Shown here: positions 3,585-64,000 of the stretch, one piece after another
Layout of the letters: each line of letters opens with the position of its first letter
How positions within the stretch are numbered: the stretch's first letter is position 1
Assembly (NCBI GenBank): GCA_001599355.1
Contig: BCGQ01000002.1
Coordinates: 1,415,909 to 1,479,908 of the forward strand
Length of the DNA stretch: 64,000 nt
Direction: 5' to 3'
Origin: Nakazawaea peltata
Lineage: Eukaryota; Ascomycota; Pichiomycetes; Alaninales; Pachysolenaceae
Translations under genes and position numbers: made by a program
The notes under the pieces: generated by a model
Told to the model about the DNA's origin: nothing
Seen by the model: the letters and a program-made list of their open reading frames with translations, nothing else
Databases searched by the model: none

Positions 3585-4763
3585 ATGTTGGTCGAAATTA
3601 AAATGAAGCCACTTCATGATATTGGGCAAATGAGATCTGTGCCGTTGGTGAAACGGGAACTGACCTCACCTAAACTGCTGTTACTGCCCAGAAATCCAGG
3701 ATCAAGTGCTATGGGTGATCTGAATAAAGGTCTTTCGTGCTCGAATTGTGGAACCACCAAGACTCCACTTTGGAGAAGAGCCGTCGATGGGAGTCTTATT
3801 TGTAATGCATGTGGATTATACTATAGACTGAATAATCACCATAGACCGGTGAATTTAAAGAGACCACTTCATACTGTGACGTTACCACAGCATCAAACTT
3901 CCGAAGGAACGTGTAAAGGTGATGGTCGTTGTAATGGAACTGGAGGTTCCCTGGCATGTAACGGATGTCCTCTGTATAATAATCGTGTTGTGATACCGGC
4001 AAATGGAGCCACTTCACCTAACCCTTCTTCACCACAAGGGAATGATTCAACTGATGGTCAAGTGAAATCGGAGGAAGAGACCGTCGCCATTGCATGTACT
4101 AATTGTGGTACTACCGTGACTCCTCTTTGGAGACGTGATGATGTGGGGAACAATATCTGCAATGCTTGTGGATTATACTTCAAATTGCGTGGATGTCATA
4201 GACCTATCAAGTTGAAAAGAGCCACGATCAAAAGAAGAAAGAGACTACAACCAACCGGTGCTTCTCTGAGCTCACCTCCTGGTGAGCTGTCACTGCCTCT
4301 GAGCAAGGTTGCAAAGACATCTGCTTCTCCTATTTTGAGATCACCTCTTGGAAATACTTCGATTAGTCCTGTGATTGTGGCATCTCCTGTTACTCAACAA
4401 TCAACTCCTGTTAGCTTTGGAGGTTCTGCTCCTCCTACTGACACAACTAATAGGATCACATTACCACCTTTGAGATTCCAACAGTTGCCTCCAGCAGTTG
4501 ATTTCACCCATTCATACAAGCCAGAATTGATGCTTCCTAGATTAAATTCTCCTAATCCAGATTCAGTTCATCCTGGGTTACCTAGACCTCAGGCCTCATC
4601 TTTAAGATCGACACCTGATCCTACACCTGGGCCTCAGAGTTTCCAGGTAACTCCTCCACGCCCATCTCAGCATAATGATAAACCAAGTTCAGCTAAATCT
4701 GAATCGGAGTCATCGACCAAGTTGTCACCACCTCCGATGAGTATGAGCTCGCTTTTGAATTAA
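3585..4763 (+). CDS. FEP1: Iron-responsive GATA repressor (Fep1/Sfu1/SreA family)
   Basis: The 392-residue protein has two GATA zinc fingers, with cysteines at 52/55/73/76 and 171/174/192/195. Between them is the hallmark cysteine block C-x5-C-x8-C-x2-C (110/116/125/128). In Fep1 of S. pombe, SreA of Aspergillus and Sfu1 of Candida, this architecture binds iron (or Fe-S) and represses iron-uptake genes at GATA sites when iron is plentiful. A basic stretch follows finger 2 ([11 protein letters not shown]). The rest is a Ser/Pro-rich, low-complexity tail. I chose the ATG at 3585, since the longer frame begins with GTG. A CTG codon in finger 1 (YYR-CTG-NNHHRP) sits where related fingers often have Ala. 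Role and nuclear location are inferred from the family; the motif itself is explicit. Confidence 0.92.
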
Positions 4764-4875: not shown

Positions 4876-5928
4876 TCAAACAGCAACTCTTTGTCTTCCC
4901 TCTCTTTGTAATGGAGGTAAATCGGTATTTTTGTCGTCTCCATACGGAACACTCCCCATTAAACCCTTGCTCTCGGCAAAATCTGACGATCTTTCGAACT
5001 GAGGATCCGTCTGGTAATACTCATCGATGATCGGATGCAATAAGACGGTCTGATTTTTCACAGTTAATATGGAATTTGTAGGCACTGTGATCCAATCTTC
5101 TCTTTCAAAGGTCAAAGGCTCAGAAGAAATCATAACCACGTCCTGTAAACGGTCTTTACGTTGCATTCTGAACTCTCCAGGTTCATATTCTACAAATTTG
5201 GACCCTGTACTGAAATGTAAAGAGGCCAGTTCATCAGTTTTTGAACTGATATATCTGGAAACTATGATTGTACAGCCATCGGTGACGGCAAAGTTCATCA
5301 ACGAAGGCTCATTACATGGGATTTCAACCTCTTTCTTCCATTTATTGAGAAGAGCAATGGTATCGAACATCAGCTGTCTCATTAACAGATGAGAAATCTC
5401 TCCTGGTTTGACATCTTTCAACTTCTTCCCTGCCAAACGTTGAAGAGAATCGAGATAAAGAGAGAAACAACTCTCACTATCAGTAGAACCTTGGATAATG
5501 TAGAAAAACTCGTCACTGATGTGATTAATCAACTTCTTCTTGATCCTGATGAAGTTAGAAACCCCACCATTGTGCATAAATGTGAAGTTATGGTAAGTGA
5601 ATGGATGACAATTGGTCTCTGATAAGACACCATAAGTAGAAGCCCTTACGTGGGCGAAAACAAGGTTAGATTTGGTTTTTTCCAGGATGACTTCCAAATT
5701 CAAGTTATTCCACAGTGGAGTAGTGTCTCTGAAACAACACGGACCTTCCACGTCACCTTCTGGGGTCTCTGGATAGTATGCTATTCCGAAGCCATCGGCG
5801 TTAATAGGGATATTGTGCATTCTTAGACGGGAGTCATATGATTGTTTTATGATGGAATGAGCGGGTCTTGTGAGTAATTTCGAGAGGAGGATTGGATCCT
5901 TGCCTTTATAGACCAAAAACCGGCACAT
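4876..5928 (-). CDS. DUG3: Glutamine amidotransferase subunit of the glutathione-degrading Dug complex
   Basis: Starting at the ATG at 5928, the protein begins MCRFLVYKGK, so Met removal exposes Cys2, the N-terminal nucleophile of class II glutamine amidotransferases. Upstream extension exists only from a TTG. The 350 residues match Dug3 in length and in conserved blocks: RPAHSIIKQS, NADGFGIAYYP, VFAHVRASTYGVLSETNCHPF, FMHNGG and QGSTDSE. With Dug2 it hydrolyses the gamma-glutamyl bond of glutathione in the cytosol, giving glutamate and Cys-Gly. The CTG codon at 5227-5229 (KTDE-CTG-ASLHF) falls where I recall DEAASL in relatives, consistent with CUG=Ala. The 3' end faces the GATA factor gene convergently, 112 bp away. 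Confidence 0.93.
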   Translation of the reverse strand: MCRFLVYKGKDPILLSKLLTRPAHSIIKQSYDSRLRMHNIPINADGFGIAYYPETPEGDVEGPCCFRDTTPLWNNLNLEVILEKTKSNLVFAHVRASTYGVLSETNCHPFTYHNFTFMHNGGVSNFIRIKKKLINHISDEFFYIIQGSTDSESCFSLYLDSLQRLAGKKLKDVKPGEISHLLMRQLMFDTIALLNKWKKEVEIPCNEPSLMNFAVTDGCTIIVSRYISSKTDELASLHFSTGSKFVEYEPGEFRMQRKDRLQDVVMISSEPLTFEREDWITVPTNSILTVKNQTVLLHPIIDEYYQTDPQFERSSDFAESKGLMGSVPYGDDKNTDLPPLQREGRQRVAV

Positions 5929-6393: not shown

Positions 6394-8527
6394 CTAAACA
6401 CCCAACGACATCAACGACCCAACAAACGTCAATATCAACCTAGATCTAACCTCATTGATATCCTCTGGTACCAACCAAATCAATGCCCCCAATTTTCTCA
6501 GAATAGAAATCAGTAATCTAGCATTAGCATATCTCTCCTCTTCGGTAGATCCCGAAGTGACCAAATCATAATCGACATATCCAGGTTTCAACCCATTGAG
6601 TAAATCTAAAAGCCAAACACCAGAAGACAAAGATGGATCTTTGAACGACCGAATAGATGAAGATTTGCCACCCTTGGCAACCTGCAGTTGTCCCCACTTC
6701 AAAATATCCGAATCGGTCAATTCTTTACCGTTCAGGGACAAAGAGTGCAAAGTTAAAGTGATGTTTCTGCGCATTAATTGCCAAACGAGCCCCAAAGTTA
6801 AAACTTTAGTACCATCTAAGATATCGGAGCCTTCGATTCCCACTAGGGAGAATTTGTTGGCTTTTCCGATTTCCACACAGTAATTTGTGTTTTCTAACGC
6901 TTTAAATCTCATTACTTCTCCACCATTAGCTGGTCTCTTGTTGACATGTTTCCAGTTAACGGTGCCAGGCATGACCTTATCAAAGGCTTGTAAAAGAACA
7001 AGACCATCCTTGACATCCTCGAATAAGGAAACCACTGGTGGGTCTACATCCAAAGAGTTCAACCATAAGGTGAAGACTCTGGCTTCTCTTTCGCCCTCTG
7101 CGTCGAACTCCTCGATTTCTGGTTTTTCCGACTCCTCGATAGGATCTAAACCAGGCCAGGTGTTGAACAAATGCAGAACAAAGGCCAAATTCAATTTAGG
7201 ATTACCGGCAACCAAAGAAGTTGGGGTCAAATATTTACGGCATCCGATTTTATCGGCATTATCCAAGATTTGTTCCAGTCTAGCAGTTAAATCCGAGGTC
7301 TGTAATGGCAGTCTGGAGCATACATCCGGTTTCAACTGGTTCAATAAGATAGTGTAATTTTCACCATCGCAAACATCCTTGGAAAAATTGGAGACTCTTC
7401 TGGACCAATTGGCCAGTTTCAAATGGTAATTGAACCATCTTAATAAGATCTGTTCTGGGGGCAATCTCAAGAATTGCTCCAAAGTCTCATCATCTTCCAA
7501 TAATCTATACAACTCAGGGTGTAATTTAATATCAATTTTACTCAATAAACCTCTTCTGATGATCTGCCAAATAAGACCTAAAATTAAATGTTCTTTACCT
7601 TCGATGATATCTTCGGAGTGGACGTTGACGACGACACAGCCAATGGCCTTAGCCGAATTGATCACAATATTGGCATTTTCCGACATGGTGAAGTTGTTGA
7701 GAGATTTACCTTTCTTAGGGAAATTCAATACTCTGGTATCGATGGTGTCTGGAACGGAGTCGTTAATCAATTTGGAAAGCAACAAACCGTCTACACACTC
7801 ATCGAAAAGTTGGAAATTGTCCAATGGGAGTGGTAATCTGTCACCTACATGAGGGTCTCCAGCTAAGACCGAGTTGATATGTCTAGTGAACTCGACTCTT
7901 TCTTCATCGTTGATGGTGTGAGTAGTGCCGGAGGTTCTTCCACTGACGATAACCTTAGCTTTATGACCTGAACCTGAATGTTGTTGCATTCCTGGAGAGG
8001 CTGGGGTGTTGAGGGTGGCACCAGCCAGAGGTTGAGCTGGCTCCAATTTCAACTCCTTCAATTTCAGCATCAATTCAACGTAATCGTCCAATTCTACATG
8101 ACCAGAAGCATCGACACTGACCTGTTTTAAGGTGTTACGAACTTCATCATACGAACCTTTACCTGATTGCGAGACACTTTCAATGATTTGTTGTTTGTCA
8201 GCCCAACCTTTGTCGTCCAGATCGATCGATCTGAACTCATCGATGATTCCAAAGAGATCTTCTTGGTTTAAGATTGGGAATTTTCTCTGTAGATGTTAGT
8301 AAGAGGTTTAGTATGGGTAGTTGAGATGAGCTTGATGGGTATGGGGTTGATTTGAGTTGAATCCGGGCTCTTCTAGTTCAATTCTAGGTCAATTTCAGTC
8401 CAGTATCAGCCCAATGATAGCCAATTCCAGCCAATTCCGGCCCACTCCAACCTAGTCCCAGCCAATGTCAGCCAATTTCATCTCTTAATATACCAAAATT
8501 ACTCACCTGTAATTTAACGATATTCAT
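6394..8527 (-). CDS. SAC6: Fimbrin (plastin), actin-bundling protein; two exons
   Basis: The coding sequence joins exon 1 (8507-8527, encoding MNIVKLQ) to exon 2 (6394-8286), giving 637 residues, close to the ~640 typical of Sac6. The intron is listed separately. The order is an N-terminal EF-hand-like region (KFPILNQEDLF...IDLDDKGW, then VDASGHVELDDYVEL), followed by two actin-binding modules with four calponin-homology domains to the C-terminus (NARL..RKLGALIWLVPEDI near the end). Fimbrin cross-links actin filaments in cortical patches and cables for endocytosis and polarity. S. cerevisiae SAC6 also has a near-5' intron. Two CTG codons at 6499-6501 and 6511-6513 (residues 603 and 599) fall on the two Ala of the plastin block corresponding to YAVSMARRIGA, supporting CUG=Ala. 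Confidence 0.95.
8287..8506 (-). other. SAC6 intron (220 nt, phase 0)
   Basis: The donor GTGAGT (8506-8501) follows codon 7. The branch point TACTAAC (minus strand, about 8295-8301) lies just before the acceptor CTACAG, which ends at 8287. Splicing restores the fimbrin reading VKLQ-RKFPIL. The intron body carries several AGCCAAT copies of unknown meaning. Confidence 0.92.
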
Positions 8528-9834: not shown

Positions 9835-12800
9835 TTATACAAGAAGATTATGATCTAAACAATGACATCCACAACCACTTGGGCATTCCACCTCTTTAGA
9901 GACAGCCCACCATTCAGATGCACACTCAGCATGAAGGATATGTGTGCAATTGGAGCACGCAAATAATCTCTTGTTCACCAATAATCCACAGTAATTACAT
10001 ACTTGAGGTTTGGCCCTGGAAGAGACATACATTGGTTCGATTTGAAGTGATGAAGATGGCAGCGGAGAGTTAGCAAAACTGCTGGAATCATCAGGTTTCA
10101 CATATCCGATCAAACCTCTGTGAACGTCATATTCAGATCCCAATGGTGAAGGGTCATGTTTGTTACTTGGATAATTGAACTTTAATACTTTTACACGGCT
10201 AGCGTGTAACCCCCACAGGTATAATAATGACAGATATTCTTCTCTGTAGCGTTTGAGCTTGATTGGATCAATGGAGTCTAACATTTTCATGGCATATGAA
10301 GTGTCGAAAAGATCGAACTGTTCTTCATGTAATACCAGAACTTTGACTCTTGGGATTTCCAAATCAGAAGGGGGTTGAGAAGTATGACCATGAGAGGGGT
10401 GATGAAGGTTTTGGAAGTTCGACATCATTAATGTGGATTGAGACATCGGGAATCTAGTAGAATTGATGCTCGAATGTCTGTCGTCTCTCATAGAGATCCC
10501 TGACACGGAATGATTATGAGAAAAATACGATAATGAGGCCGAAGATGGGGCTCGGTGATGAGACATCCCACTCTGACCAGAAACCATCATATTGGAATTT
10601 TCACTTATACTTTCCCGATGCAATGAATAAGGAGAAGAAGGAATTTGTTTACGGAAATACCCTGGCAGACGATCCGGAGACAGAGATTTAAAACTATGCA
10701 GCTCAAACGACGACATTGAGCTGGCTATTGACCCGATTCTCAGTTGACTGGATGGTTGATGAGGGAAATAAGACGAAGTAGAAGGCATGCGTGCCATACT
10801 GGCACTCACACTACCACTAATAATTCCAGACAGCCTCGAAACGGAGCTATCCGACAAACTAAACAGCACTGTATTACCCCCAAAATGAGAAGATTTTTTA
10901 TGCCTGGAACTTTCTCCAGATGATTTCTTATATGGTACATGGATGGCCACGGATGTGTCCATACGATTATCTTGATTCTCAAATAATATACAACTTAACA
11001 TCAGTAACATTTGTATGTCCTGTCTACTTTCGTAATACTCGAACAATTTCTTAGTGAGCCATTTACCCCCAAATGGATGAGATCCCCAATAAAATCTAAA
11101 GAGCTTGGCCTCTTCCAGATCGGCTTGGGTGCTTTGTAAGAAATGTCCAAAGAGTTTGTTATTAGCGACCAGTTGCTGTTGCATTAGTTCGTCCTCTAGC
11201 TCTACATCTTTGGTGAGAATTACACTAAGAAGTCTCCAACAGTCCAGAATATCATGATAACCGAATCTCTCAGCGACAAATGAGTTATGTCTGGCCAACA
11301 TTTCAGGACTATCACCCAAAATACGGTACTCAAATGCCAATTCCATCTTTGCTGGAATCAAATGACGTAAATCATGAATTCTGACTATATTTCTGATTCT
11401 ACTAGACCCTAAATAGCGTCCATCAGTAGATTTAGAAGCATGAGAAAGTGCTGTTCCCGTAGTAGCATCACCTCCCCCGCCTCCAGGAGTATCAGAAAGT
11501 CCTCCGAATCTCTTCTGAGCTCTAGATCTCACCCCATATCCAATTCCAATGTTTTTATTCAAGAATCGAGAAAGTCTAGGTACTTCATCTTCGAGAATTT
11601 CATCGAAATCGTTGGAAAGTGAGTCTGAATCTGAATCATTGGAGTCTGAGTCAGAGGAATCGTCTAATCTGGACATTTTCTTCAGTGTTTTCAGTGTCTT
11701 AGCAAGTGTTCCCGTCAATCCGAACCCTTGTTGGTCAAATTTCAACATAGCAGTCTTGGGTTTCTCTACTTGGGGGATGAAAAAACACACTAAATGACCA
11801 CTTGCAGTCCAAATGGCTCCACAACCTTTAGGAACAGGAGTCGAATCGAATCCTAATTCGGTATTAGTGGTATCAGGAGCTGTTCCGGACTTATTTTGGG
11901 CCCCTGCCATGAGAAGATCGTCTTCCTCATCGTCTTCTTCTTCCTCTTCTTCCTCCGATGTAGCTGATGTCATGCTAATCTCATCGGCAACATCGAAATT
12001 GTCCTCATATGGAATCTCGAATGGATCCAACATCAATGCTTCATCTCCGTTCTCAACAAGAAGGTTTGCCAAATCCAATTTCTCTCCCATCAAGAACCGG
12101 AGACAAGTCTCAAGACAAAACTTGTGTCGTTCATGATATTTGGAGACGATTTCTCGTAATCCCAGAGTGATCTCCAGGTGTTTCTCGGAAGAGAGATCGT
12201 GGCTTTCTTCTATATGGAATTGAGGAGGCTCAGAAGCTGAAGGGTATCCTCTTGGGAAGACCAGTTCGACTCTGATGAAGATGAGATCTTCTTTAGAAGG
12301 GGTATCATCTGTGGAATTTGGGGGGTTAGACGGGTTACTGTTGGTGGGGTTACTGGTGCTACTATTACCGGAATTAGTGTTACTGGTAGGGCCGGGGTTA
12401 ACTACATCTACACTTCCCCATGGCCCCATCAAAGATAATATCAAGTTCCCTGTAGATACAGAAATCCTCTCAAATCTAATTTTAGGAAATTTATGACCAA
12501 CCATACTGACTTCTTCTCCGAAATTCAACACCTGCTCTTCATTACCTTCGAAGATATTACGAGAGATTTGGGTAGCTGGGTTCAGAGAACGACCTATTCT
12601 CACACCAGAAATCCAATTCAATTGTTGTTTAGCAAGAGCTCCTACACCTGAGGCAGCAGAAGCAGGGGCAGTAGAAGCTGTGGCAGAGGATAATCTCATC
12701 CTCGATGCCATATATTGGTTACTGGTAGCTGCATTTATAGCAGCCATAATCTCGTCCTGCTCCTCATTAGTTTCAGTAGAAGAGGTAGGAGTCGATGGGA

Positions 12801-13929
12801 GGGGTTCATCTCTATAAGTAATATAATTGTACGAGGGTAATTTCTTGCCTGAAGGTAGAGGGAGGCTCCGTTGGAAGTTGGCTTGCTCGTAGAAATCATC
12901 ATTAAGCGGCCAAAGTCTCAAATCGCAGTCCTTTGACCATGTCACAAGCTGGAATTCTCGGTCATCTACTTCACTATTTGGAGTATGTCTTTCACGCCAA
13001 AGGAAATCTTTGACAGGCTCACTATGGCCTTTAAAGATATAAGAAGGTTTTAATTTGGAAACTCCGGTCTGGTCTTTGTAATCTACGATGAAGACCGAGT
13101 TATTTCCACCCAGAGAAGGCATAATTCCACAAGAAGACTCGCCAAATGGTAAATGACGAGCTCTATTTACGGGGAAATCGGTATTTATAGTATATACAGG
13201 CTCCTCAATGCTCTTGTTGTAATCCCAGAACTTGACTGTCATGTCATGAGAACAAGAAATGATCTCGGTCTCGTATAATCGACCAAAATCAAGCCCATTT
13301 ATTCCTCTAGTATGAGCATTGATCTTATGTACCGGGATGGAACCTTTTCTGGTATCCCAGACATAGAAATAGTTATCGTGAGCACTCAGAAGAGTGTATG
13401 GGTTGATGAAATTCCATTTCACCTGCGAACTTCCAGCCTTCCAATCGGCAAATTTATGGACGGGTCTTCGAGAAGTTCGAAGGTCCCATACAGTGACAAA
13501 AGTATCGACACTACAAAGCAGGAGCAACTCAGGGTCTATGGGATGGAAGTTGATATCGGTAACAGCCCTGGAATGTCCATGTAAAACATGCTCTATGGCA
13601 TTATCGGCGACCCCACGGGCTAAATTCCATACCATCAGTTTCTGATTCGAGGTCGAGACCACCCACGAGGGTTTGACATTGCCATGGGGCGACCATTGAA
13701 CGTCGGCGACTTCCCAAGATGTCACGTGATGTAACCATCTCGGTTCTGAAAACGGGTCATCCAAATCTATCACATATAAACCCCTTCTGCCTGCTAGCAC
13801 GGCGTCTCTTCCATTGGGAGCTAAGGACATGGCGCCAATATCACCGTCCACTCTAAGAGAGAGGGTATTTTCGAAGGTTGTTGAGTCGAAGGGGGACATC
13901 ATTGAGGGGGATGATGATCGTAGGGGCAT
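9835..13929 (-). CDS. MTC5: SEA complex subunit Mtc5/Sea3 (WDR59-type WD40-RWD-RING protein)
   Basis: This 1364-residue protein starts at the ATG at 13929. The domain order is diagnostic. A WD40 propeller covers about residues 25-360 (for example VWDLRTSRRPVHKF and VKFWDYNKSIEEP). An RWD domain follows near 480-640 (PKIRFERISVS...RVELVFPRGYPSASEPPQF). Then come a long region with Asp/Ser-rich stretches and a C-terminal RING-like zinc module with paired cysteines (CNYCG, CSNC, HAEC, CPSGCGCHC). WDR24/Sea2 lacks the RWD, so WDR59/Sea3 is the better call. The SEA (GATOR) complex at the vacuole controls TORC1 in response to amino acids. Mid-protein Ser-rich segments are longer than in S. cerevisiae Mtc5 (about 1150 residues). 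Confidence 0.9.
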   Translation of the reverse strand: MPLRSSSPSMMSPFDSTTFENTLSLRVDGDIGAMSLAPNGRDAVLAGRRGLYVIDLDDPFSEPRWLHHVTSWEVADVQWSPHGNVKPSWVVSTSNQKLMVWNLARGVADNAIEHVLHGHSRAVTDINFHPIDPELLLLCSVDTFVTVWDLRTSRRPVHKFADWKAGSSQVKWNFINPYTLLSAHDNYFYVWDTRKGSIPVHKINAHTRGINGLDFGRLYETEIISCSHDMTVKFWDYNKSIEEPVYTINTDFPVNRARHLPFGESSCGIMPSLGGNNSVFIVDYKDQTGVSKLKPSYIFKGHSEPVKDFLWRERHTPNSEVDDREFQLVTWSKDCDLRLWPLNDDFYEQANFQRSLPLPSGKKLPSYNYITYRDEPLPSTPTSSTETNEEQDEIMAAINAATSNQYMASRMRLSSATASTAPASAASGVGALAKQQLNWISGVRIGRSLNPATQISRNIFEGNEEQVLNFGEEVSMVGHKFPKIRFERISVSTGNLILSLMGPWGSVDVVNPGPTSNTNSGNSSTSNPTNSNPSNPPNSTDDTPSKEDLIFIRVELVFPRGYPSASEPPQFHIEESHDLSSEKHLEITLGLREIVSKYHERHKFCLETCLRFLMGEKLDLANLLVENGDEALMLDPFEIPYEDNFDVADEISMTSATSEEEEEEEDDEEDDLLMAGAQNKSGTAPDTTNTELGFDSTPVPKGCGAIWTASGHLVCFFIPQVEKPKTAMLKFDQQGFGLTGTLAKTLKTLKKMSRLDDSSDSDSNDSDSDSLSNDFDEILEDEVPRLSRFLNKNIGIGYGVRSRAQKRFGGLSDTPGGGGGDATTGTALSHASKSTDGRYLGSSRIRNIVRIHDLRHLIPAKMELAFEYRILGDSPEMLARHNSFVAERFGYHDILDCWRLLSVILTKDVELEDELMQQQLVANNKLFGHFLQSTQADLEEAKLFRFYWGSHPFGGKWLTKKLFEYYESRQDIQMLLMLSCILFENQDNRMDTSVAIHVPYKKSSGESSRHKKSSHFGGNTVLFSLSDSSVSRLSGIISGSVSASMARMPSTSSYFPHQPSSQLRIGSIASSMSSFELHSFKSLSPDRLPGYFRKQIPSSPYSLHRESISENSNMMVSGQSGMSHHRAPSSASLSYFSHNHSVSGISMRDDRHSSINSTRFPMSQSTLMMSNFQNLHHPSHGHTSQPPSDLEIPRVKVLVLHEEQFDLFDTSYAMKMLDSIDPIKLKRYREEYLSLLYLWGLHASRVKVLKFNYPSNKHDPSPLGSEYDVHRGLIGYVKPDDSSSFANSPLPSSSLQIEPMYVSSRAKPQVCNYCGLLVNKRLFACSNCTHILHAECASEWWAVSKEVECPSGCGCHCLDHNLLV

Positions 13930-25200: not shown

Positions 25201-25812
25201 TTGGCTGTTGAACGTTCATTAGATTGTGGAGGACTGATAGTACGGTAAGGATTCGACTGTTGAGGGTTGTCGAATAATGGGAAAGATTTGGATTGCTCTG
25301 GGGTGTGTAAGGCGGCTCCAGAGACAGCAGAGTGTAGGGCCTTACCAGAGCTTGGCTGTCCCGGGGCCTCAGAGCTCGTGTTAAGGATGTTCTGGAAATT
25401 ACTGGAGGCTCTCGGATCACCCGACCCAGTAGACAACAGGGTAGAATCTGTACTTGATGTAGAACCAAGGTCAGATTGCTGATTTCCCGCAAATAGAAGC
25501 TTAAATTCGCCCTTCAGAGGCTCTTTCTTCTTGTTTAAACGCTTAGGGCCGGTCCATACGGGTTCTTCGTACTCGCAAAGATGGGCAATATGGTACCTTT
25601 TGCATACTTCACAGTTGGGTTTGCCTTTGTCGCACTGAAATTCGATCAAAAAAGTTAGTATTAAATGGAAGAAGGGGCTATCACTGACGAGTCTAACATA
25701 CCTTGACTTTTCTTTTCCGACATATATTGCAAGACAATGGAAGTCTCTTTCTCTTGAGAGGTTTACGGGGCGTTAACTCGCCTTTCAGTACCTCCATTAC
25801 CATCTCATCCAT
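22221..25812 (-). CDS. HAP1-related Zn2Cys6 transcription factor without heme motifs; two exons
   Basis: Exon 1 (25702-25812, ATG at 25812) encodes 37 residues and exon 2 (22221-25634) the rest, for 1174 residues in all. Splicing completes a Zn2Cys6 cluster with Cys 28/31/38/45/48/57, spaced 2-6-6-2-8. This is identical to the neighbouring HAP1 protein and very like Hap1 (SCNICRKRKVKCDKGKP, AHLCEYEEPVW). A fungal-specific TF middle homology region spans roughly residues 550-1000. Unlike its neighbour, it has no Cys-Pro heme motifs. It appears to be a HAP1 paralogue that has lost, or never had, heme sensing. Targets are unknown. The unspliced frame lacks half of the zinc cluster. Confidence 0.88.
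25635..25701 (-). other. Intron inside the zinc cluster of the HAP1-related gene (67 nt)
   Basis: The donor GTATGT begins at 25701. The branch point TACTAAC lies upstream of the acceptor TTTCAG ending at 25635. It is phase 0 between Lys37 and Cys38, splitting the Zn2Cys6 motif after its second cysteine. Confidence 0.93.
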
Positions 25813-26456: not shown

Positions 26457-29400
26457 TCAATGGAACCATGACCCATTCTGCTGGCGATTCTGTCCCTCAG
26501 AATTCATCCCAGTTTGTTCCGGCCCCAGATTAGGGTATACAGGCAACGTATTAAGGTCGACGTTGGTGAAATCGATCTCATTGACCCCATAAAAGTGGTG
26601 CTGCTGGTTCGGAGGTTCATTGAAGACATCAGCACCGAAAAATTCAAAAGCTACAGGCATCGGATGAGCATCTGAAGCCTGTGGAGCAGCAGCAGATGTC
26701 CCCATGAACAAACTACGGTCATTTATAGGGAAATTATCGAGCATCAACTCGTCAAACATGTCCATATGATTTGGATCGGAGAGTCCGTTGAGTATTTGTG
26801 AGCCAAATTCGGTCGGACCATCATTTGAACCATCGGCCGTTGTTGAGAAGACTCCAGTGCTGGTGCTGGTACCGGTACAGGCGCCGTTACCGGAGAGAAC
26901 TCCAGAACCTGACTCCAGTTCGGTATTCAACTGTAAATTACTCGTAATCTGCTGAGCAGAAGGGGATGGAACCAAAATAGCAGGATTTGTAACAGAATCC
27001 TCTTGTTTAAGATGGAAAATATCGACCGTAGGAGATCTGAATTCCTGTGGAGACACCATTGATGAGTGTATGGAAGGTGGAATAGAAGACTGAGAAAGCT
27101 GTCTTTGCTGCTGTTGCTGCTGCTGTTGCTGCCTCTGCTGCTGAATTCTCCTCCTATCCCTCTCCAGAACCGCAATCTTCCTCTGATTAGGCAAAACAGG
27201 CACAGAAGAAGTCTTAATATCCTGAAGAACAGGACACTGGTCCATAGAACTCCCATTTCTCAGAAGCATCTTGGTATAATTAGTAGTAAATAACTTGCTA
27301 GAGCTAATGAGCACATTATAAAAGAATTTCATCAACTTTTTCAACCTCCAAGCATAATAATAATGTCTGGTCAATTTATCCAATTTGTTCAAGAAAATTT
27401 TAAGGTATCCAAATAACTTATTTAACAATTCTTCCTTATTAATTCCATTCAGAACCAAAATTTGAGTCACCATAGGATCCTCCTGCTGGAGTCTGAGCAC
27501 CAAACTGATAATGAATTGTTTGGAACGATGATTCAATATCATCAAAAATGGATAAATCAATAACTCACCCCCCAAATCCGGGAAAAATTTATGCGAATTA
27601 TCGAAAAATTGTACAAAAATATTATAGTTATCGATAGCCAACAATAAAGTCCTCTCGAAATGCTCGTCATAAACCAGTTTCGTGTATTGAATCAGCTGAG
27701 CCAATTGGGGATCCAATTTATCGAGGCAAGAAGGATCTTCAGCCACAGTCCGAGGATCAAGTCCATTCTCAGAGAGAAGTTCCTTCAATTTCAACTCATA
27801 ATTCAAAAACATGATATAATTCAAGACGAACATCAACATTTTTACGATTAAGAATAATTTGAACTCGAAAATACGGGCACTGGCCGATAATTCGGATTCT
27901 CTGTTACGGTCATAACGGGTGAGAAGTTGGGCGCAACTCAATGCGGGGGTTCCCGAGACATCACCACTAGATTTTTCTTCCGCTTCATCATGGACAAGCA
28001 GAGTCAATTGCTCTAAAATACCATGAACCTCAGCTCTAGCAGGTAAAGTCTTCACATTCAAAAGCACCTTCATCCCACGGTAAATTAAAATATTAATTTT
28101 ATACTCCAAATCCATTAACTGAACTACTTTCAATTCCCTTTGGAAATTGGTGTCGGAACCCCCCGAGAAGTCCGGGAAACACCTTCTCAAAGTAGCCAGG
28201 TCGGTGGCAGATGGTCTACGAGTATCCCAATATTCATTAAAATTCCCATGTCCAGATTCTACGCCATTATCGTCATCTATTTCGATATTCAAATGCTTGG
28301 AATAATCCCCGAGCGAAATATTAGTCAAGACATTCATATTGATCAATGAATACCACATCTTTCGCCATAAATGACGTCTACGAAGTAAATGTATACTGAC
28401 GGCCTCATCTTTGGACTGGGTTTGGAAGTTTTTAAAGTTCAATGGGTCCCTATTTAACCCAATAGTCTTAGCAAGAGAGATCAAAGAGTTCAAAAAGACC
28501 GACGAGTTCAAATTTAACAGTTCTTTGTCGGGAGAAACCCCATTGGAATGTCCAGAACCATTATAACTGTCGTCTAATTCGAAACCATCCTCCGGAGCTA
28601 ACACATTATAGTATTTAAGGAACATTCCCACCTGTAAAATGACTACGGAAGGTGTGGACAAGATGCGAACATCGGTGAATATCTCTTTAATCACATCTAC
28701 AAGTACCATTGGGACTACATTTTCGGGCCTGATCAAGACCTTTTCGTCTGCTGTTAATTCTTGCGAATGTTCACCTGTTTGAGAGAACTTTTTAGGTAAA
28801 TTTGACGGTAATGTGAGCCAACTTAACCTCAAAATGAGTAACATCAAACATAAAGTGAGGAAATCTTCGTTATAATCGGAACCTAAGTCGGTTAACTTGA
28901 TTTTTTGACCTCCAGGAGCCGATTCTACACTTCCTATGATCTTGGTTACTCTTTCTCTGAATGAATATTCGTCTACGATGGGCAAATGGAGGTACAATTT
29001 GTCGAAAAACCGGTTGATGAGTAACCAGGCCACTTTACGAGTGGGCATATGCCTTTCAAATACGGCAATTACCTCCTTGGGGTTGCTGAAATTCATCGCC
29101 TTGATGTCTGTAGGCATAGTGAGGGTCTTAAGACGTTTAGAATTGGTTTTACGACGCTTAGAGGCAGGATTTGAGTCACATCCGATCACCGGACATTCAC
29201 TTCCCAGTCCATGACCATGATCATGGCTGTCTCCACCATTAGAAGCCGAATTTCTGGCCGATAATCTCTCTCTAAAGATGGTTTTGGCATCTCCAATCAT
29301 CAATGGACAGACTTTTGAGTCTTCGTTGTCGTCATCTTCGGCTAGTTTGGCTAAATCCGAAGGGAGCAGTGGGCATCGAGCCTCTGAGACTAACTGTTTA

Positions 29401-30737
29401 AGACCGGCATTGTGTTTGATTACGGGACACTGTAACATGTGTTGGGATGGGATTGAACGGGAGACGTTGGGCAGTTTTTTGAAGGTTGGTTTGAGTTTTG
29501 GGGGAGCGGAGGATCCAGATGATCCAGGGACTGAATTTCCACTCACTGGGCAGGATCCGGATGGTGCAGAGACAGAATTTCCACTCACTGGACAAGATCC
29601 AGAAGACTCAGATACAGAATTTCCACTAACTGGACATGTCAGTGGAACCTCTGAGCCCTCTGAACCCATCTGTACATCCATATCCGCACTCCTCTTCAAC
29701 GGAACAGCAGCCTCAGGCTCATATCCTCCCATAGGACATTCTCCTACTTGCTTAGTCACTGGGCATTGAGCCGCAGCCGGAGGCTCCGCTTGATTAGTCT
29801 CAAAATTAAACGAATTATAATCAGTTTCCTCCTCCTTCATAGGCATACTCTGTCGACTGGTCACAAATTTAGCTGAATTACTCTTGATATTCGATATGAA
29901 AGTATTAGTCTGCTTGGATAACTCCAAGATCTTCTTACTGGACTCTGAACTATCAACCAGAGTATACTGCTGCTCATAATATTTCCTCAAATTGAACACC
30001 TTGATCCACAAATCGTTCAAGTAGCTGTCATTCTTGATGATAAACAACCATGACATGATACTTATCTGGTATATGATGGGGAGCTGGCTCTTGGTGTTGC
30101 GTTTAGAAGTGTATAAAATATTGAAATTTTTAACCAAATCGATCTCGTTTAGTCCAATAGTGTAAGGGTTGTCTGCGATGGCTGGAACTCGTTTTAAATC
30201 GGCTCCATTGGATCCTAGACCACTCCGCGGCGTCGCAATACTCGTCACTGGTGTGTTCGTCGAGATAATGGGCACTGTACTGAGCTGTTGTCTCTGGAAC
30301 AGCACGGTATTCTCCAACTCTGCGAGTTTCAGCCGCAATTTCTGGATCTCTTCGTCTTTATTGATCGAGTCGGTGTCGGAATGGTCGTTTTTATCACGAT
30401 CTTTGCCGGCTTGAACCCCTGATCCTCCCACATATCCCATTTTTCCGTGGGTTTCCAGCACATCTTTGGCCCATGTTGGCTGCAAATAAAAGCAGAGGTG
30501 CTGTACACCGTTCTTCTTACAGTTGTTGCATGTCGGCTTGCCCTTGTCACACTTGACCTTCCGTCTCCGACAGATAGTACACGATATCGGGACTCTATTT
30601 CTCTTCCGGGCCTTCAGCAGAGCTCCATTTTTCTTGTCTTGACCGCTGGGTTCTGGCGTTTCTTGTTTGAAGGCGGCGGAGGCGTTTCCTGGGTGCGACT
30701 CACCTTCACTGGGTGATGGTGTGGTCGTAGGATTCAT
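26457..30737 (-). CDS. HAP1: Heme-responsive Zn2Cys6 activator Hap1
   Basis: The 1426-residue protein starts at the ATG at 30737. A Zn2Cys6 cluster has Cys 53/56/63/70/73/82 (ISCTICRRRKVKCDKGKP, QHLCFYLQPTWAKDV), and its Hap1 signature extends into the TWA segment. Ten Cys-Pro dipeptides followed by Val, Leu or Met are present. Nine lie between the zinc cluster and the middle homology region, including three 14-residue tandem copies of CPVSGNSV-type units. One (QCPVLQD) lies far toward the C-terminus, mirroring HRM1-6 and HRM7 of S. cerevisiae Hap1. Family knowledge: heme binding at Cys-Pro motifs relieves repression and activates respiratory and sterol genes. A Gln-rich run and an acidic C-terminal region look like activation segments. 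Confidence 0.9.
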   Translation of the reverse strand: MNPTTTPSPSEGESHPGNASAAFKQETPEPSGQDKKNGALLKARKRNRVPISCTICRRRKVKCDKGKPTCNNCKKNGVQHLCFYLQPTWAKDVLETHGKMGYVGGSGVQAGKDRDKNDHSDTDSINKDEEIQKLRLKLAELENTVLFQRQQLSTVPIISTNTPVTSIATPRSGLGSNGADLKRVPAIADNPYTIGLNEIDLVKNFNILYTSKRNTKSQLPIIYQISIMSWLFIIKNDSYLNDLWIKVFNLRKYYEQQYTLVDSSESSKKILELSKQTNTFISNIKSNSAKFVTSRQSMPMKEEETDYNSFNFETNQAEPPAAAQCPVTKQVGECPMGGYEPEAAVPLKRSADMDVQMGSEGSEVPLTCPVSGNSVSESSGSCPVSGNSVSAPSGSCPVSGNSVPGSSGSSAPPKLKPTFKKLPNVSRSIPSQHMLQCPVIKHNAGLKQLVSEARCPLLPSDLAKLAEDDDNEDSKVCPLMIGDAKTIFRERLSARNSASNGGDSHDHGHGLGSECPVIGCDSNPASKRRKTNSKRLKTLTMPTDIKAMNFSNPKEVIAVFERHMPTRKVAWLLINRFFDKLYLHLPIVDEYSFRERVTKIIGSVESAPGGQKIKLTDLGSDYNEDFLTLCLMLLILRLSWLTLPSNLPKKFSQTGEHSQELTADEKVLIRPENVVPMVLVDVIKEIFTDVRILSTPSVVILQVGMFLKYYNVLAPEDGFELDDSYNGSGHSNGVSPDKELLNLNSSVFLNSLISLAKTIGLNRDPLNFKNFQTQSKDEAVSIHLLRRRHLWRKMWYSLINMNVLTNISLGDYSKHLNIEIDDDNGVESGHGNFNEYWDTRRPSATDLATLRRCFPDFSGGSDTNFQRELKVVQLMDLEYKINILIYRGMKVLLNVKTLPARAEVHGILEQLTLLVHDEAEEKSSGDVSGTPALSCAQLLTRYDRNRESELSASARIFEFKLFLIVKMLMFVLNYIMFLNYELKLKELLSENGLDPRTVAEDPSCLDKLDPQLAQLIQYTKLVYDEHFERTLLLAIDNYNIFVQFFDNSHKFFPDLGGELLIYPFLMILNHRSKQFIISLVLRLQQEDPMVTQILVLNGINKEELLNKLFGYLKIFLNKLDKLTRHYYYAWRLKKLMKFFYNVLISSSKLFTTNYTKMLLRNGSSMDQCPVLQDIKTSSVPVLPNQRKIAVLERDRRRIQQQRQQQQQQQQQRQLSQSSIPPSIHSSMVSPQEFRSPTVDIFHLKQEDSVTNPAILVPSPSAQQITSNLQLNTELESGSGVLSGNGACTGTSTSTGVFSTTADGSNDGPTEFGSQILNGLSDPNHMDMFDELMLDNFPINDRSLFMGTSAAAPQASDAHPMPVAFEFFGADVFNEPPNQQHHFYGVNEIDFTNVDLNTLPVYPNLGPEQTGMNSEGQNRQQNGSWFH
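29515..29645 (-). repeat. Three tandem 42-bp units coding CPVSGNSV heme-type motifs
   Basis: Within HAP1, three 42-bp direct repeats each encode a 14-residue unit beginning with CPVSGNSV and ending near SGS. Each copy therefore adds one Cys-Pro heme-motif candidate. Confidence 0.85.
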
Positions 30738-33763: not shown

Positions 33764-35629
33764 ATGCTCACCAACGTGATCACCAAAATCCCCGGCGATT
33801 TTTCAGGGCAAGAGCGGGTTAAAGACGAGACTTGCAAGTACTGGCTACTCCATCTATATATCATGATCAGTTTGACTTGTAAAAGGGCCAGTTACGTGGC
33901 GCCTATGTACAGAGTGACTTTTGGGGTCCCGAAACCCGGTATAAATACGGTTATTCCGAGGGTTCTTCCCGGGAATCCTTCGGTCTCGCGCCGATTAGCC
34001 AGTTATAGTCGTGAAGAACGTGGTAAAAATGGGACAAATGGTCGTTTTTTCACCGGATCAGTGGCTCTTGTAGGTACAGGAACCGTCTTATACTTCACGA
34101 ATGACAGTTTTCACGATTCCACCAAGCATTTTGCCATGACTTTGAAGCGTGTTGGAGTGATCACGGTGGCTGTCACCCAATGTTTCTATTTGTACTCGAA
34201 GCAGTTGAGGTGGAGCTCGTTTGGGAGTGAAGAAGAGCGTAAACTGCTGATGTCAGAAACACATAAGAGGGCTCTGAAAGTGACCTTGAAACTGTTGGAG
34301 ACCAACGGAGGAATCTATATCAAATTGGGACAGCATGTGAGTGCGATGACTTATTTATTACCGGCGGAATGGACAGAAACCATGGTTCCTTTGCAACAAT
34401 GCTGTCCTCAGAGTGATATGCAGGAGATCGAGAAGATGTTTTTGGATGATTTGGGTGTGTCTGTGGGTGATTTGTTCTCGGAATTCACCACAGATCCCAT
34501 CGGAGTACTGTCTTTACTGCAAGTTCATGTGGCTACTCTCCGAGAGACTGGGGAGAAGGTTCTGGTCAAGTGCCAGCACCCTTCGTTGAAGGAGTTTGTT
34601 CCGTTGGATGTGCTGATGACCAAATTGGTATTCGATTTGATGTTAAAGGTGTTCCCGGAGTATCCGTTGACCTGGTTGGGAGACGAGTTACTGACTTCTA
34701 TTTTTGTGGAGTTGGATTTCCAGAATGAACTGAGGAACGCAGAACATACCGATGAATATTTCTCTCATTACAAAGACAAGACTCTGCTTCGTATCCCTCA
34801 TATTTCAGAAGCTCATAAACGTATCTTGATTATGGAGTTTGTAGGAGGTGCTCGTTTGGATGACTTGGAATATTTGGATTCTCATCATATTTCAAGGGGA
34901 GAGGTGTCTTCATGTCTCTCTCATATTTTCAATAACATGATTTTCACCCCTGGAGTCGGTGTACATTGTGACCCTCATGGTGGTAACCTTGCTATCCGTT
35001 CGAGGAAGCCAACTGCCGACAATAAACATAACTTTGAGATCGTATTGTACGACCATGGATTGTACCGTCAAATTCCCGACCAGATGAGGAAAGATTACCT
35101 GAAATTTTGGTTGCTGTTGTTGGATGGGGATACCAAAGCTATGGAGCAGCATGCCAAACTGTTTGCCGGTATCAAAAGTGAACAGTTTCCTATCTTGGCC
35201 CTGGCAATCACCGGGAGAGACTACAAACATGCTCTTAGTGGGAATATTATGGAGGTCCGGGGGGAAGATGAGATCAATAATATGACAGAATCGTTATTAA
35301 ACAAGGGCCATGTCCTAGATTTGATGTCCTTGTTGCTGACATTACCTCGTGTAGTGTTGTTGATCTTGAAAACTAACGATTTGACAAGACATTTAGACGA
35401 AAGTTTGCAAAATCCGTTGGGATTGGAGAGAACTTTCTTCATATTAGCGACTTATTGTGCTCGTACAGTGTTACAAGAGGATTTGGAGAAGGCTTCTATT
35501 CTTAGAGGATGGAACTGGCTCATTGCCCAGTTCAAATGCTACTGGAAATACTACAAAAGAGTCGACCAATTGGTGTTGTATGACATTGGGATGAGCTTAC
35601 GTAATCTTTTGAGGAAAGGTCGTGTATGA
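33764..35629 (+). CDS. CQD2: Mitochondrial ABC1/ADCK-family atypical kinase Cqd2 (Mcp2)
   Basis: The first ATG is at 33764 (621 residues); Met33 (MISLTCKRASYVAP) is an alternative start giving a more typical presequence. ABC1-family motifs are in order: KxGQ-type IKLGQHVSAM, GVxSLxQVHVATL, VELDFQNE, MEFVGGARLDD, VHCDPHGGNLAIR and LYDHGLYRQI. These best match Cqd2/Mcp2 of the inner mitochondrial membrane, which affects coenzyme Q distribution and lipid homeostasis. A membrane segment is likely near residues 90-150. Three CTG codons at 34508, 34517 and 34730 fall on family alanines (GVASLAQVH and the Ala of NEARNAE), supporting CUG=Ala. Confidence 0.9.
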   Translation: MLTNVITKIPGDFSGQERVKDETCKYWLLHLYIMISLTCKRASYVAPMYRVTFGVPKPGINTVIPRVLPGNPSVSRRLASYSREERGKNGTNGRFFTGSVALVGTGTVLYFTNDSFHDSTKHFAMTLKRVGVITVAVTQCFYLYSKQLRWSSFGSEEERKLLMSETHKRALKVTLKLLETNGGIYIKLGQHVSAMTYLLPAEWTETMVPLQQCCPQSDMQEIEKMFLDDLGVSVGDLFSEFTTDPIGVLSLLQVHVATLRETGEKVLVKCQHPSLKEFVPLDVLMTKLVFDLMLKVFPEYPLTWLGDELLTSIFVELDFQNELRNAEHTDEYFSHYKDKTLLRIPHISEAHKRILIMEFVGGARLDDLEYLDSHHISRGEVSSCLSHIFNNMIFTPGVGVHCDPHGGNLAIRSRKPTADNKHNFEIVLYDHGLYRQIPDQMRKDYLKFWLLLLDGDTKAMEQHAKLFAGIKSEQFPILALAITGRDYKHALSGNIMEVRGEDEINNMTESLLNKGHVLDLMSLLLTLPRVVLLILKTNDLTRHLDESLQNPLGLERTFFILATYCARTVLQEDLEKASILRGWNWLIAQFKCYWKYYKRVDQLVLYDIGMSLRNLLRKGRV

Positions 35630-52479: not shown

Positions 52480-53598
52480 TTAATATTTAGCCCGCTCTTT
52501 TGTTATCTCGTCGTAGAGCATACATTTCCAGTCGAACACCGATAAATCGTCTTTGAAAGTGTCGAACACAAAGAAATCAGGTGGCAATGGGGGTGCATCC
52601 GGTTCGTCTTCCACACAATGGTACTCCAGCAAATACGGATGTCGAAGCAGTTCTGCCACGGTGATCCTGTTCTTTGGATTGAAAGTCAACATCTTCTCCA
52701 TAAGGTCAATACCGTCACGGTCTACTCCCAAAGATGAAAATATCTTCTTAAGACTCATTTTACGGAAGAAAGGAAGCGATTTGATATACTCACTTGCACT
52801 TCGTGATTTTATCGCTTTACAATCTTCCCCCACCGGAGTCCCCAATACTTTGAATATGAGAATCAACTGGTCACGGAAATCCCTGCCAGGGAATAAAGGT
52901 TTCTTCATGAACAATTCCAGCATAATACATCCGACAGACCAAATATCGATCAGTTTCGAATATTGAGAATTGGTGAGCATGATCTCAGGTGCCCTGTACC
53001 ATCTGGTAGCCACATATTCGGTCATCATATTCAATTCTTGGTCAGGCAACTGTCTATTGGACCTGTTTTCCTTCTCATCGATCCTCGAGAGCCCGAAATC
53101 ACATATTTTCAAATCGCAATTGGAATTCACAAGCAAATTCGACGGCTTGAGATCCCGATGAATGATATTCACACTATGTAAAGCCTTAAGACCACGAAGA
53201 ATCTGATAAGTGAAGTACTTACAATGGTCTTGAGTCAAAGGTTGGGTATTGATGATCTTATGCAAATCAGATTGCATTAGCTCTTGAATGAGATAAACCT
53301 CATTGAACTGATCAAAATCTATCGGGTCTTGAACTCGAAAGAGCCCTATAATGTTCTCATGTTTGAAATGTCTGAGTATTTTGATCTCTCTTAGTGTACG
53401 AATACAGAAGAGGGCCCGCTCGAAGGGTTCGATTTTCTTGATGGCAACTTCACGTCCTGTCGCCTTGTGTACTGCCGATCCAACAATTCCATAGGCCCCT
53501 TCTCCGAGAATCTGCTGAACTTGGAATGACGATGAGATGTTGAAGTAAACCTTCCGTATAGGAGGCGCCTTTATTTGGGGATCCTTATAAACTTGCAT
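52480..53598 (-). CDS. FUS3/KSS1: Fus3/Kss1-type MAP kinase (pheromone/filamentation)
   Basis: A complete 372-residue MAP kinase. Features: Gly-loop GEGAYG (32-37), catalytic Lys54 in VAIKK, HRDLKPSN (147-154), DFG (167-169), and activation-loop TEY (193-195) followed by VATRWYRAPE. The short C-terminal extension has an acidic DEPDAPPLPPDFF segment as in Kss1. The TEY motif and loop insert place it in the Fus3/Kss1 (Candida Cek1) group acting in mating, filamentation and wall-integrity signalling. The protein has exactly four CTG codons (residues 216, 227, 317, 324). Each aligns with Ala in Fus3 and/or Kss1 (SRAMDVW, CILAEL, EALRHPYLAMYH). Confidence 0.93.
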   Translation of the reverse strand: MQVYKDPQIKAPPIRKVYFNISSSFQVQQILGEGAYGIVGSAVHKATGREVAIKKIEPFERALFCIRTLREIKILRHFKHENIIGLFRVQDPIDFDQFNEVYLIQELMQSDLHKIINTQPLTQDHCKYFTYQILRGLKALHSVNIIHRDLKPSNLLVNSNCDLKICDFGLSRIDEKENRSNRQLPDQELNMMTEYVATRWYRAPEIMLTNSQYSKLIDIWSVGCIMLELFMKKPLFPGRDFRDQLILIFKVLGTPVGEDCKAIKSRSASEYIKSLPFFRKMSLKKIFSSLGVDRDGIDLMEKMLTFNPKNRITVAELLRHPYLLEYHCVEDEPDAPPLPPDFFVFDTFKDDLSVFDWKCMLYDEITKERAKY

Positions 53599-62587: not shown

Positions 62588-62595
62588 TATAAATA
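62588..62595 (+). promoter_or_regulatory. TATA box of the adhesin gene
   Basis: TATAAATA begins 63 bp before the ATG at 62651. Confidence 0.5.
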
Positions 62596-62650
62596 TGGTA
62601 TTCCCGGTCTCTCTGCAAGCAAGTCGAATAATAGTTCAACAACAGCTCTC

Positions 62651-64000
62651 ATGCAAAGGATGATTCCTTATTACTTTTGGATATTTGTCCTTATTGGAGC
62701 AGTGTTTGCTAAGGATAGAGATGGTAATAACTCCCGTGTCGTCTCCACTTACGGTTGTGATGTCACCGACTCATCCATTTCAAGTGGATTCAGCGTCCAG
62801 TTCTACAACTACGAAAACAAGGATTTGAAGTCATTTTTCAACGCAAAGTTCATGGCGTCAGGCTATAGGAAGCTCAAAAAGACTTCAAATGTAGTTGGAG
62901 TTAAACATCCTAGATTCAAGTTGATCGAAACCAGTGACGATCCCAATCTTCGTGATAAGGTCTATGGAGTGTCTGTGACTGTCAACCATTTCCTTGCCCA
63001 GTTGACAGGTTATTTTTACGCAAGAGAGTCAGGATACTATACCTTTCGTTTGTCTGTTGCTGATGATGCTTGTATGGTTTTCTTTGGTTCTGCAGCCGCA
63101 TTCAAGTGCTGTGACAAAGAGGCGTTTGTTATCAGCAAGAAAGTAACTGATGACTACTTACTTTACACAAAAAAGACAATTGATGAAGAGCAGTACTCAT
63201 CAATGACAAGCTCCATCTATTTAGCAAAAGGATATTTCTACCCAATGAGAGTCGTCTATGTTAATCTGGAGAGATGGAATGCAAAATTGGACTTCAGCGT
63301 TACTACTCCATCTAAGAACAAAATCACGAACTTCAATAATTGGATTTTCGATTTCAAAAATTCGAAAAACAAAAAGCGTTGTCATGCAACAACAGCTACC
63401 CCCAAAACTTATACCAGAACTACTCACTGGAGTCATCATTATACTAAGACTTTTACTCATACGTTAAAGAATGGTGATGTTTCAAAGGTTATCGATCTTC
63501 CACCATACAAAACGACAAAGACGGTTCCATGGTCTGGAACATTTACTACTAGAACCACTAAAAAGGACAAAATTGGCGATGTTACNGTGATTGTTAAGAC
63601 GCCAACTCATAAGCCACATACTGTCACAACCACTAAGCCTTGGACTGGAACTCGTACTACCCGTACCACCAAGACCGCACATAATAAAGATGTGACTGTC
63701 ATAGTTAAGACGCCAACTCATAAGCCAATTACCACTACCACTACAGAGCCGTGGACTGGAACTGTTACATCCAGTACTACCACCACTGGCTCGAATGGAG
63801 ATGTCACTGTTATTGTTGATACCCCAGCCTCAGCTCCGTTCACACTTACTAGAACTACATCATGGACAGGAAAGGTTAGATCTACCACCACTACCACTGG
63901 AGAACATGGCGATGTGACTGTTATTGTCGAGACTCCAAAGAAGAAGAAGAAACATACTACGACTACCACTACTCCATGGACAAGAAAGATCACATCAACC
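62651..64000 (+). CDS. PA14/GLEYA-type adhesin (flocculin-like), 5' part, runs off the edge
   Basis: The frame is open from the ATG at 62651 to the last base (450 codons, no stop). It has a signal peptide (cleavage near VFA-KD, residue 20). A flocculin-like ligand-binding domain spans about residues 60-240: LTGYFYARESGYYTFRLSV, ADDACMVFFGSAAAFKCC, YLAKGYFYPMRVVYVN. The DD and CC pairs match PA14 flocculins such as Flo5. From about residue 245, Thr-rich units of about 36 residues repeat five to six times, with PWTGT...GDVTVIVxTP cores. Family knowledge: the lectin-like head binds sugars or cells and the repeats span the wall. An ambiguous base N at 63586 sits in a Thr codon third position (ACN), so it does not affect the protein. 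Confidence 0.88.
   Translation, partial: MQRMIPYYFWIFVLIGAVFAKDRDGNNSRVVSTYGCDVTDSSISSGFSVQFYNYENKDLKSFFNAKFMASGYRKLKKTSNVVGVKHPRFKLIETSDDPNLRDKVYGVSVTVNHFLAQLTGYFYARESGYYTFRLSVADDACMVFFGSAAAFKCCDKEAFVISKKVTDDYLLYTKKTIDEEQYSSMTSSIYLAKGYFYPMRVVYVNLERWNAKLDFSVTTPSKNKITNFNNWIFDFKNSKNKKRCHATTATPKTYTRTTHWSHHYTKTFTHTLKNGDVSKVIDLPPYKTTKTVPWSGTFTTRTTKKDKIGDVXVIVKTPTHKPHTVTTTKPWTGTRTTRTTKTAHNKDVTVIVKTPTHKPITTTTTEPWTGTVTSSTTTTGSNGDVTVIVDTPASAPFTLTRTTSWTGKVRSTTTTTGEHGDVTVIVETPKKKKKHTTTTTTPWTRKITST

What the first reader, a model, noticed from the sequence alone, without database searches (positions are those of the whole stretch)
52627..52953. All four CTG codons of the MAP kinase fall on conserved alanines: nuclear CUG=Ala code
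The kinase has exactly four in-frame CTG codons, at + positions 52951-52953, 52918-52920, 52648-52650 and 52627-52629 (residues 216, 227, 317, 324). Read as Leu they give odd residues. Read as Ala they restore SKAIDIW, CIMAELF, AEALRHPYLA, matching Fus3 (SRAMDVW, CILAEL) and Kss1 (EALRHPYLAMYH). Reassignment of CUG to alanine is known only in the Pachysolen/Nakazawaea/Peterozyma lineage. It places the organism and changes every protein in the window. The alignments are from memory of the reference proteins.
Basis: partly seen in the sequence, partly recalled or inferred. Interest (0 to 1): 0.93.

Follow-up and report, generated by a model that had tools for sequence, protein, structure and literature searches.

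The report
Yeast reads CTG as alanine
This stretch of DNA comes from a budding yeast in which the codon CTG spells alanine instead of the usual leucine, a rare but already known change of the genetic code that must be taken into account to read its proteins correctly.

Summary
For the kinase alone the claim is overstated: three of four sit on Ala in FUS3, two in ERK1; the fourth is Gln or Glu. The conclusion is still right, on better evidence from the rest of the window. In 8 window proteins aligned to solved homologues, CTG cells hold Ala in 45 of 104, Ser in 10, Leu in 4; of columns invariant in at least two homologues, CTG fills 10 of 33 Ala, 0 of 80 Leu, 0 of 32 Ser. A 20-amino-acid test ranks Ala first (+39.5 bits; Ser +0.7; Leu -74.1) and recovers 50 of 53 control codons. 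Pfam scores of 20 proteins rise 84.7 bits as Ala over Leu, 36.7 over Ser. Window paralogues lean the same way. This is NCBI table 26, known from Pachysolen, Nakazawaea and Peterozyma (PMC5951914), so not new. The tRNA-Ala(CAG) gene, the species and peptides could not be checked: no genome is held, and no tRNA was found in the window. CTG is the commonest Ala codon here (254 of 880).

The parts
52480..53598 (-). FUS3/ERK-type MAP kinase (372 aa) with four CTG codons
52951..52953 (-). CTG, kinase residue 216 (FUS3 A, ERK1 S)
52918..52920 (-). CTG, kinase residue 227 (FUS3 A, ERK1 A)
52648..52650 (-). CTG, kinase residue 317 (FUS3 A, ERK1 A)
52627..52629 (-). CTG, kinase residue 324 (FUS3 Q, ERK1 E; not a conserved Ala)
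6394..8070 (-). Fimbrin (four CH-domain stretches), 10 CTG; of the 8 that align with fimbrin 1rt8 (S. pombe, species recalled), 6 are Ala, 1 Arg, 1 Ser
6499..6501 (-). CTG, fimbrin residue 524: Ala in 4 of 4 homologues
7174..7176 (-). CTG, fimbrin residue 299 (NLAFVxHLF): Ala in 4 of 4 homologues
7276..7278 (-). CTG, fimbrin residue 265: Ala in 4 of 4 homologues
33764..35629 (+). ABC1/COQ8-type atypical kinase, 16 CTG; largest single Pfam gain as Ala (214.9 Leu, 241.5 Ala, 229.0 Ser)
34508..34510 (+). CTG, ABC1 residue 249: Ala in 4 of 4 homologues
34517..34519 (+). CTG, ABC1 residue 252: Gly in 4 of 4 homologues (an invariant column that is not Ala)
34562..34564 (+). CTG, ABC1 residue 267 (EKVxVK; homologues EVAVK or EVAMK): Ala in 4 of 4
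34730..34732 (+). CTG, ABC1 residue 323: Ala in 3 of 3
9835..13929 (-). Mtc5/WDR59-type WD-repeat protein, 24 CTG; residues 98, 137, 181 are Ala in Mtc5 (8adl) and V, V, A in WDR59
4876..5928 (-). Class-II glutamine amidotransferase, 5 CTG; residue 82 Ala in 2 of 2, residue 72 Ala in 3mdn but Leu in EgtC (4zfk)

Best explanation
The window is nuclear DNA of a budding yeast of the CUG-Ala clade (order Alaninales, family Pachysolenaceae: Pachysolen, Nakazawaea, Peterozyma). CUG is translated mainly or wholly as alanine. Shown here: the codon's occupancy of alanine positions. Inferred from the literature: decoding by a tRNA-Ala whose anticodon mutated to CAG, possible because alanyl-tRNA synthetase does not need anticodon bases, in place of the ancestral tRNA-Leu(CAG). 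CTA and the other Leu codons still mean Leu here, so the Leu tRNA that reads CUA must not read CUG (inference).
For: Per-codon test with CTG masked: Ala +39.5 bits, Ser +0.7, Leu -74.1 over 38 nearest-homologue cells; 50 of 53 control codons with at least 10 cells recovered, the misses being ATG and TGG (single-codon amino acids, no training data) and GTA (Ile 7.8 over Val 4.9). With 24 homologue stretches: 104 CTG cells, Ala 45, Ser 10, Leu 4; Ala +92.1, Ser +1.3, Leu -170.0; invariant columns filled by CTG: Ala 10 of 33, Leu 0 of 80, Ser 0 of 32. Pfam, 20 proteins: Ala minus Leu +84.7 bits (15 up, 4 down, 1 tie), Ala minus Ser +36.7 (13 up, 5 down, 2 ties). Window paralogues: CTG lies opposite 15 of 167 GCN codons, 3 of 470 other Leu codons, 2 of 352 Ser codons. 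CTA stays Leu: 8 of 9 cells. The code and clade are described in PMC5951914, with LC-MS/MS on 18 species.
Against: No tRNA gene found in the window and no genome held, so the decoder is not seen. 59 of 104 CTG cells are not Ala, about the share for ordinary GCN codons (136 of 216 not Ala). One invariant CTG column is Gly, ABC1 residue 252, 4 of 4. In paralogues CTG also faces Met, Ile or Val in 16 of 79 cells and Lys in 8. Four of 20 Pfam proteins score better as Leu and five better as Ser than as Ala. A minor fraction of Ser or Leu incorporation cannot be excluded.
Confidence: 0.97

Rival explanations
1. CUG is serine (Ser1 or Ser2 clade, NCBI table 12).
For: Ser is second best: Pfam +48.0 bits over Leu; 5 of 20 proteins score better as Ser than as Ala. 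CTG cells hold Ser in 10 of 104, and Ser is the majority in 3 of 41 CTG columns.
Against: Ala beats Ser by 36.7 Pfam bits and by 38.8 bits or 90.8 bits in the homologue tests; CTG fills 0 of 32 invariant Ser columns but 10 of 33 invariant Ala columns; GCN cells hold Ser in 20 of 216, so the Ser cells look like ordinary Ala-to-Ser substitution.
Confidence: 0.02
2. Standard code: CUG is leucine and the alanine matches are chance or selective reading.
For: Four of 104 CTG cells are Leu; the kinase alone gains only 2.3 Pfam bits as Ala; 4 of 20 Pfam proteins score better as Leu.
Against: Leu ranks 19th of 20 amino acids; 0 of 80 invariant Leu columns use CTG and Leu is the majority in 0 of 41 CTG columns; none of 100000 random draws of 38 Leu-codon cells gave as many Ala, and none as few Leu.
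Confidence: 0.003
3. A variant of the best explanation, not exclusive of it: CUG is decoded ambiguously, mainly Ala with a minor share of Ser or Leu.
For: Conservation shows only the dominant meaning; PMC5951914 states that its LC-MS/MS does not rule out low-level incorporation of other residues. Paralogue cells include 16 of 79 Met/Ile/Val.
Against: CTG sits on conserved Ala as often as GCN does: 18 of 38 against 38 of 91, Fisher p 0.57, so no sign of avoidance of critical sites.
Confidence: 0.1

Closest known systems
CUG-Ala nuclear code (NCBI table 26), Pachysolen tannophilus, Nakazawaea, Peterozyma; order Alaninales
   Same: CUG occupies conserved alanine positions in nuclear genes; of 53 other sense codons with at least 10 cells, 50 keep their standard meaning in the test, ATG, TGG and GTA being missed.
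   Different: The source species is unknown. [quoted passage not shown] here CTG is the commonest Ala codon (254 of 880; GCT 244) and sits on conserved Ala as often as GCN.
CUG-Ser1 and CUG-Ser2 codes (NCBI table 12; Candida clade; Ascoidea, Saccharomycopsis)
   Same: Same codon, budding yeasts, same published route through a mutated CAG anticodon.
   Different: CTG fills no invariant Ser column here, 0 of 32.

Membership tests
CUG-Ala nuclear code (table 26) | CUG codons on conserved alanine positions | tested here: met
   10 of 33 invariant Ala columns are CTG, 0 of 80 Leu, 0 of 32 Ser; +39.5 bits Ala
CUG-Ala nuclear code (table 26) | tRNA-Ala with anticodon CAG | not testable with these tools
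   no tRNA found in the window; no genome held
CUG-Ala nuclear code (table 26) | Ala found at CUG sites by mass spectrometry | not testable with these tools
   needs cells
CUG-Ala nuclear code (table 26) | phylogenetic position in Alaninales | not testable with these tools
   no yeast genome collection is on hand; three scans for relatives in other collections found nothing. Fungal gene content only: the best PDB hits of five of the eight searched proteins (FUS3, Mtc5, Grx6, 1xe7, MNT2) are S. cerevisiae proteins, species recalled
CUG-Ser code (table 12) | CUG codons on conserved serine positions | tested here: not met
   0 of 32 invariant Ser columns; Ala over Ser by 36.7 Pfam bits
Standard code (table 1) | CUG codons on conserved leucine positions | tested here: not met
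   0 of 80 invariant Leu columns; Leu 19th of 20

The most novel reading that the evidence does not exclude
The yeast lies outside Alaninales and reassigned CUG to alanine independently, a second origin of the code. The window cannot exclude this because the placement rests on the code itself. A milder reading that the data do favour: in this lineage the reassignment is fully mature, with CTG as the commonest alanine codon and on conserved sites.
Probability: 0.03. Interest if true: 0.8.

Novelty: already known. Interest (0 to 1): 0.3.

Why it matters
All 254 CTG codons in the 25 listed reading frames would be misread by the standard table; annotation, structure prediction or expression of these genes should use table 26. 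For evolution of the code, the heavy use of CTG at conserved alanine sites shows what a completed sense-codon reassignment looks like.

Tried and rejected
tRNA search in the window with ARAGORN (four option sets, three of them with introns allowed) and Rfam at gathering thresholds: nothing. Whole-genome search: none held. Scans for relatives: fimbrin and MTC5 in viral contigs (2 of 8 scans used) and kinase in genome contigs: 1, 600 and 13 pattern matches, none a relative. G+C of the window is 42.2%; I recall about 30% for Pachysolen tannophilus, which would point to Nakazawaea or Peterozyma, but I found no passage to confirm it (search listings; the table passage gave no G+C), so I do not use it.

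I first pasted 14 homologue stretches (0 Leu in 62 cells; nearest-homologue subset of 10 stretches, 38 cells). Other printed homologues had Leu at CTG columns, so I redid the count with 24 stretches (4 Leu in 104 cells: ABC1 284, MTC5 273, amidotransferase 72, cupin 134). The control-codon test was run only on the 38-cell subset, not on the 24 stretches. Still left out among the printed alignments: near-duplicates or close relatives of rows used (2b9h, 4qtb, 2zoq, 1aoa, 3l4n, 4zfj, 5i35), the weak repeats of WDR24 (9dx2), short or weak extra domains of 3mdn, 4zfk, 4zfj and WDR59, Mtc5 domain 3, Mtc5 domains 5 and 6 that the printout cut, and the ends of Mtc5 domains 1 and 2. Hits without a printed alignment were not used.

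Only 8 of the 25 listed reading frames were compared with PDB sequences; P0008 was translated but not searched. Pfam: 28 stretches were scanned as Leu and 20 of them again as Ala and Ser; of the 8 dropped, 6 had no Pfam hit and 2 had one (26457-30737, Zn_clus; 62588-63998, GLEYA/PA14). Some of the 20 best-family scores lie below Pfam's own cut-off (the WD-repeat model of MTC5, ASMase_C, adh_short). Notebook entry 1 misdescribes ABC1 residue 252; it is Gly in 4 of 4 homologues.

Full report
Observation. The kinase ORF at 52480-53598 (-) has exactly four in-frame CTG codons at the stated coordinates. Its best solved match is FUS3. With CTG left as X, the aligned FUS3 residues are A, A, A, Q; in ERK1 they are S, A, A, E. 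So 'all four on conserved alanines' is not right: two are Ala in both, one is Ala or Ser, and the fourth is Gln or Glu. Three Ala of four has a chance probability near 0.0007. The Pfam kinase score is 221.8 bits as Leu, 224.1 as Ala and 220.5 as Ser. The kinase alone would be a hint, not a proof.

Window-wide homologue test. I translated eight window proteins with CTG as X and searched the PDB sequences. In a first set restricted to the nearest homologue per gene, 38 CTG cells held Ala 18, Ser 4, Leu 0; other Leu codons in the same alignments held Leu in 149 of 242 and Ala in 6; GCN codons held Ala in 38 of 91. Scoring all 20 amino acids with substitution frequencies learned from the other codons gave Ala +39.5 bits, Ser +0.7, Leu -74.1. 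The same procedure with each other codon masked recovered the standard amino acid for 50 of 53 codons with at least 10 cells; the misses were ATG, TGG and GTA, and seven codons had too few cells. With 24 homologue stretches there were 104 CTG cells in 41 columns: Ala 45, Ser 10, Glu 8, Gly 8, Val 5, Leu 4 and others; Ala is the majority in 13 columns, Ser in 3, Leu in none. Columns identical in at least two homologues: CTG fills 10 of 33 Ala, 0 of 80 Leu, 0 of 32 Ser; ABC1 residue 252 is an invariant Gly column. The clearest sites are fimbrin residues 265, 299 and 524 and the COQ8-type kinase residues 249, 267 and 323. Cells from several homologues at one column are not independent.

Pfam test. 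Twenty window proteins were scored under table 1, table 26 and table 12. Summed best-family bits: 2260.7 as Leu, 2345.4 as Ala, 2308.7 as Ser. Ala beats Leu in 15 of 20 (4 worse, 1 tie) and Ser in 13 of 20 (5 worse, 2 ties). Without the COQ8-type kinase the sums are still +58.1 over Leu and +24.2 over Ser.

Test inside the window. Three Mannosyl_trans3 genes and two LicD genes are paralogues (identity 0.40-0.51). In their four pairwise alignments CTG faces an alanine codon in 15 of 79 cells, another CTG in 10, Lys in 8, Leu in 3, Ser in 2, and Met, Ile or Val in 16. Seen from the other side, CTG faces 15 of 167 GCN, 3 of 470 other Leu and 2 of 352 Ser codons. Cells are not independent across the three mannosyltransferase pairs.

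Mechanism. Shown: CTG behaves as an alanine codon, and CTA still as Leu in 8 of 9 cells. From PMC5951914 (abstract, section 4, section 5 part 1 of 2, and section 11 read): the CUG-Ala clade holds Pachysolen, Nakazawaea and Peterozyma; [quoted passage not shown] AlaRS and SerRS do not need particular anticodon bases; a killer-element toxin against tRNA-Leu(CAG) is the authors' hypothesis for the cause. No tRNA was found in the window, and no genome is held, so the decoder here is inferred.

Usage. In 25 reading frames (14,501 codons, stops included; one frame open at the right edge) CTG occurs 254 times, 17.5 per thousand. Counted as alanine it is 28.9% of 880 alanine codons (bootstrap 25.2-33.2%) and the commonest, though GCT (244) is close and CTG leads in only 3135 of 5000 bootstraps. 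CTG lies in aligned stretches about as often as GCN (38 of 78 against 91 of 204) and on Ala as often (18 of 38 against 38 of 91, p 0.57). [quoted passage not shown] PMC6701816 (passages) removed five CUG-Ala species from its codon study; PMC11540330 (passages) included Alaninales. I did not see per-species CTG figures in the passages.

Other reading. PMC4986446 (2014, passages) reported that Pachysolen has no CUG at highly conserved Leu positions but some at conserved Ser positions; the alanine meaning in P. tannophilus was reported in 2016. PMC6692504 (passages), PMC8178436 (passage) and PMC11415595 (passage) name the same CUG-Ala genera, wholly or in part. PMC4050208 (Bagheera) was seen as abstract and outline only.

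Taxonomy. NCBI places Nakazawaea in Pachysolenaceae, Alaninales. Placement of this window there rests on the code alone.

Verdict.

Noticed in passing
window 38895-64000: Cluster of cell-wall or surface genes: three Mannosyl_trans3 genes, two LicD genes (Mnn4-like is recalled) and a GLEYA/PA14 protein with Thr-rich repeats running off the right edge.
   Followed up: partly
window 22221-25772 (-): Fungal_trans transcription factor ORF is open upstream of its first ATG and carries what looks like the second half of a Zn2Cys6 cluster (CDKGKPNCEVCKRYHIAHLCEY), so the gene is probably spliced with a first exon beyond 25772. Pfam found no domain in 24681-25772 alone.
   Followed up: partly
25 ORFs of the window: CTG is the commonest alanine codon (254 of 880) while GCG (41) and CTA (2.5 per thousand) are rare.
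   Followed up: partly
window 38895-61007, paralogues: Between paralogues CTG faces Met, Ile or Val in 16 of 79 cells, six of them Met; ATG is one base from CTG, but this may also be a trace of former Leu sites.
   Followed up: no
window 3585-4763 (+) and 18979-20670 (-): Two GATA-factor genes in one window, the first with two GATA finger matches.
   Followed up: no
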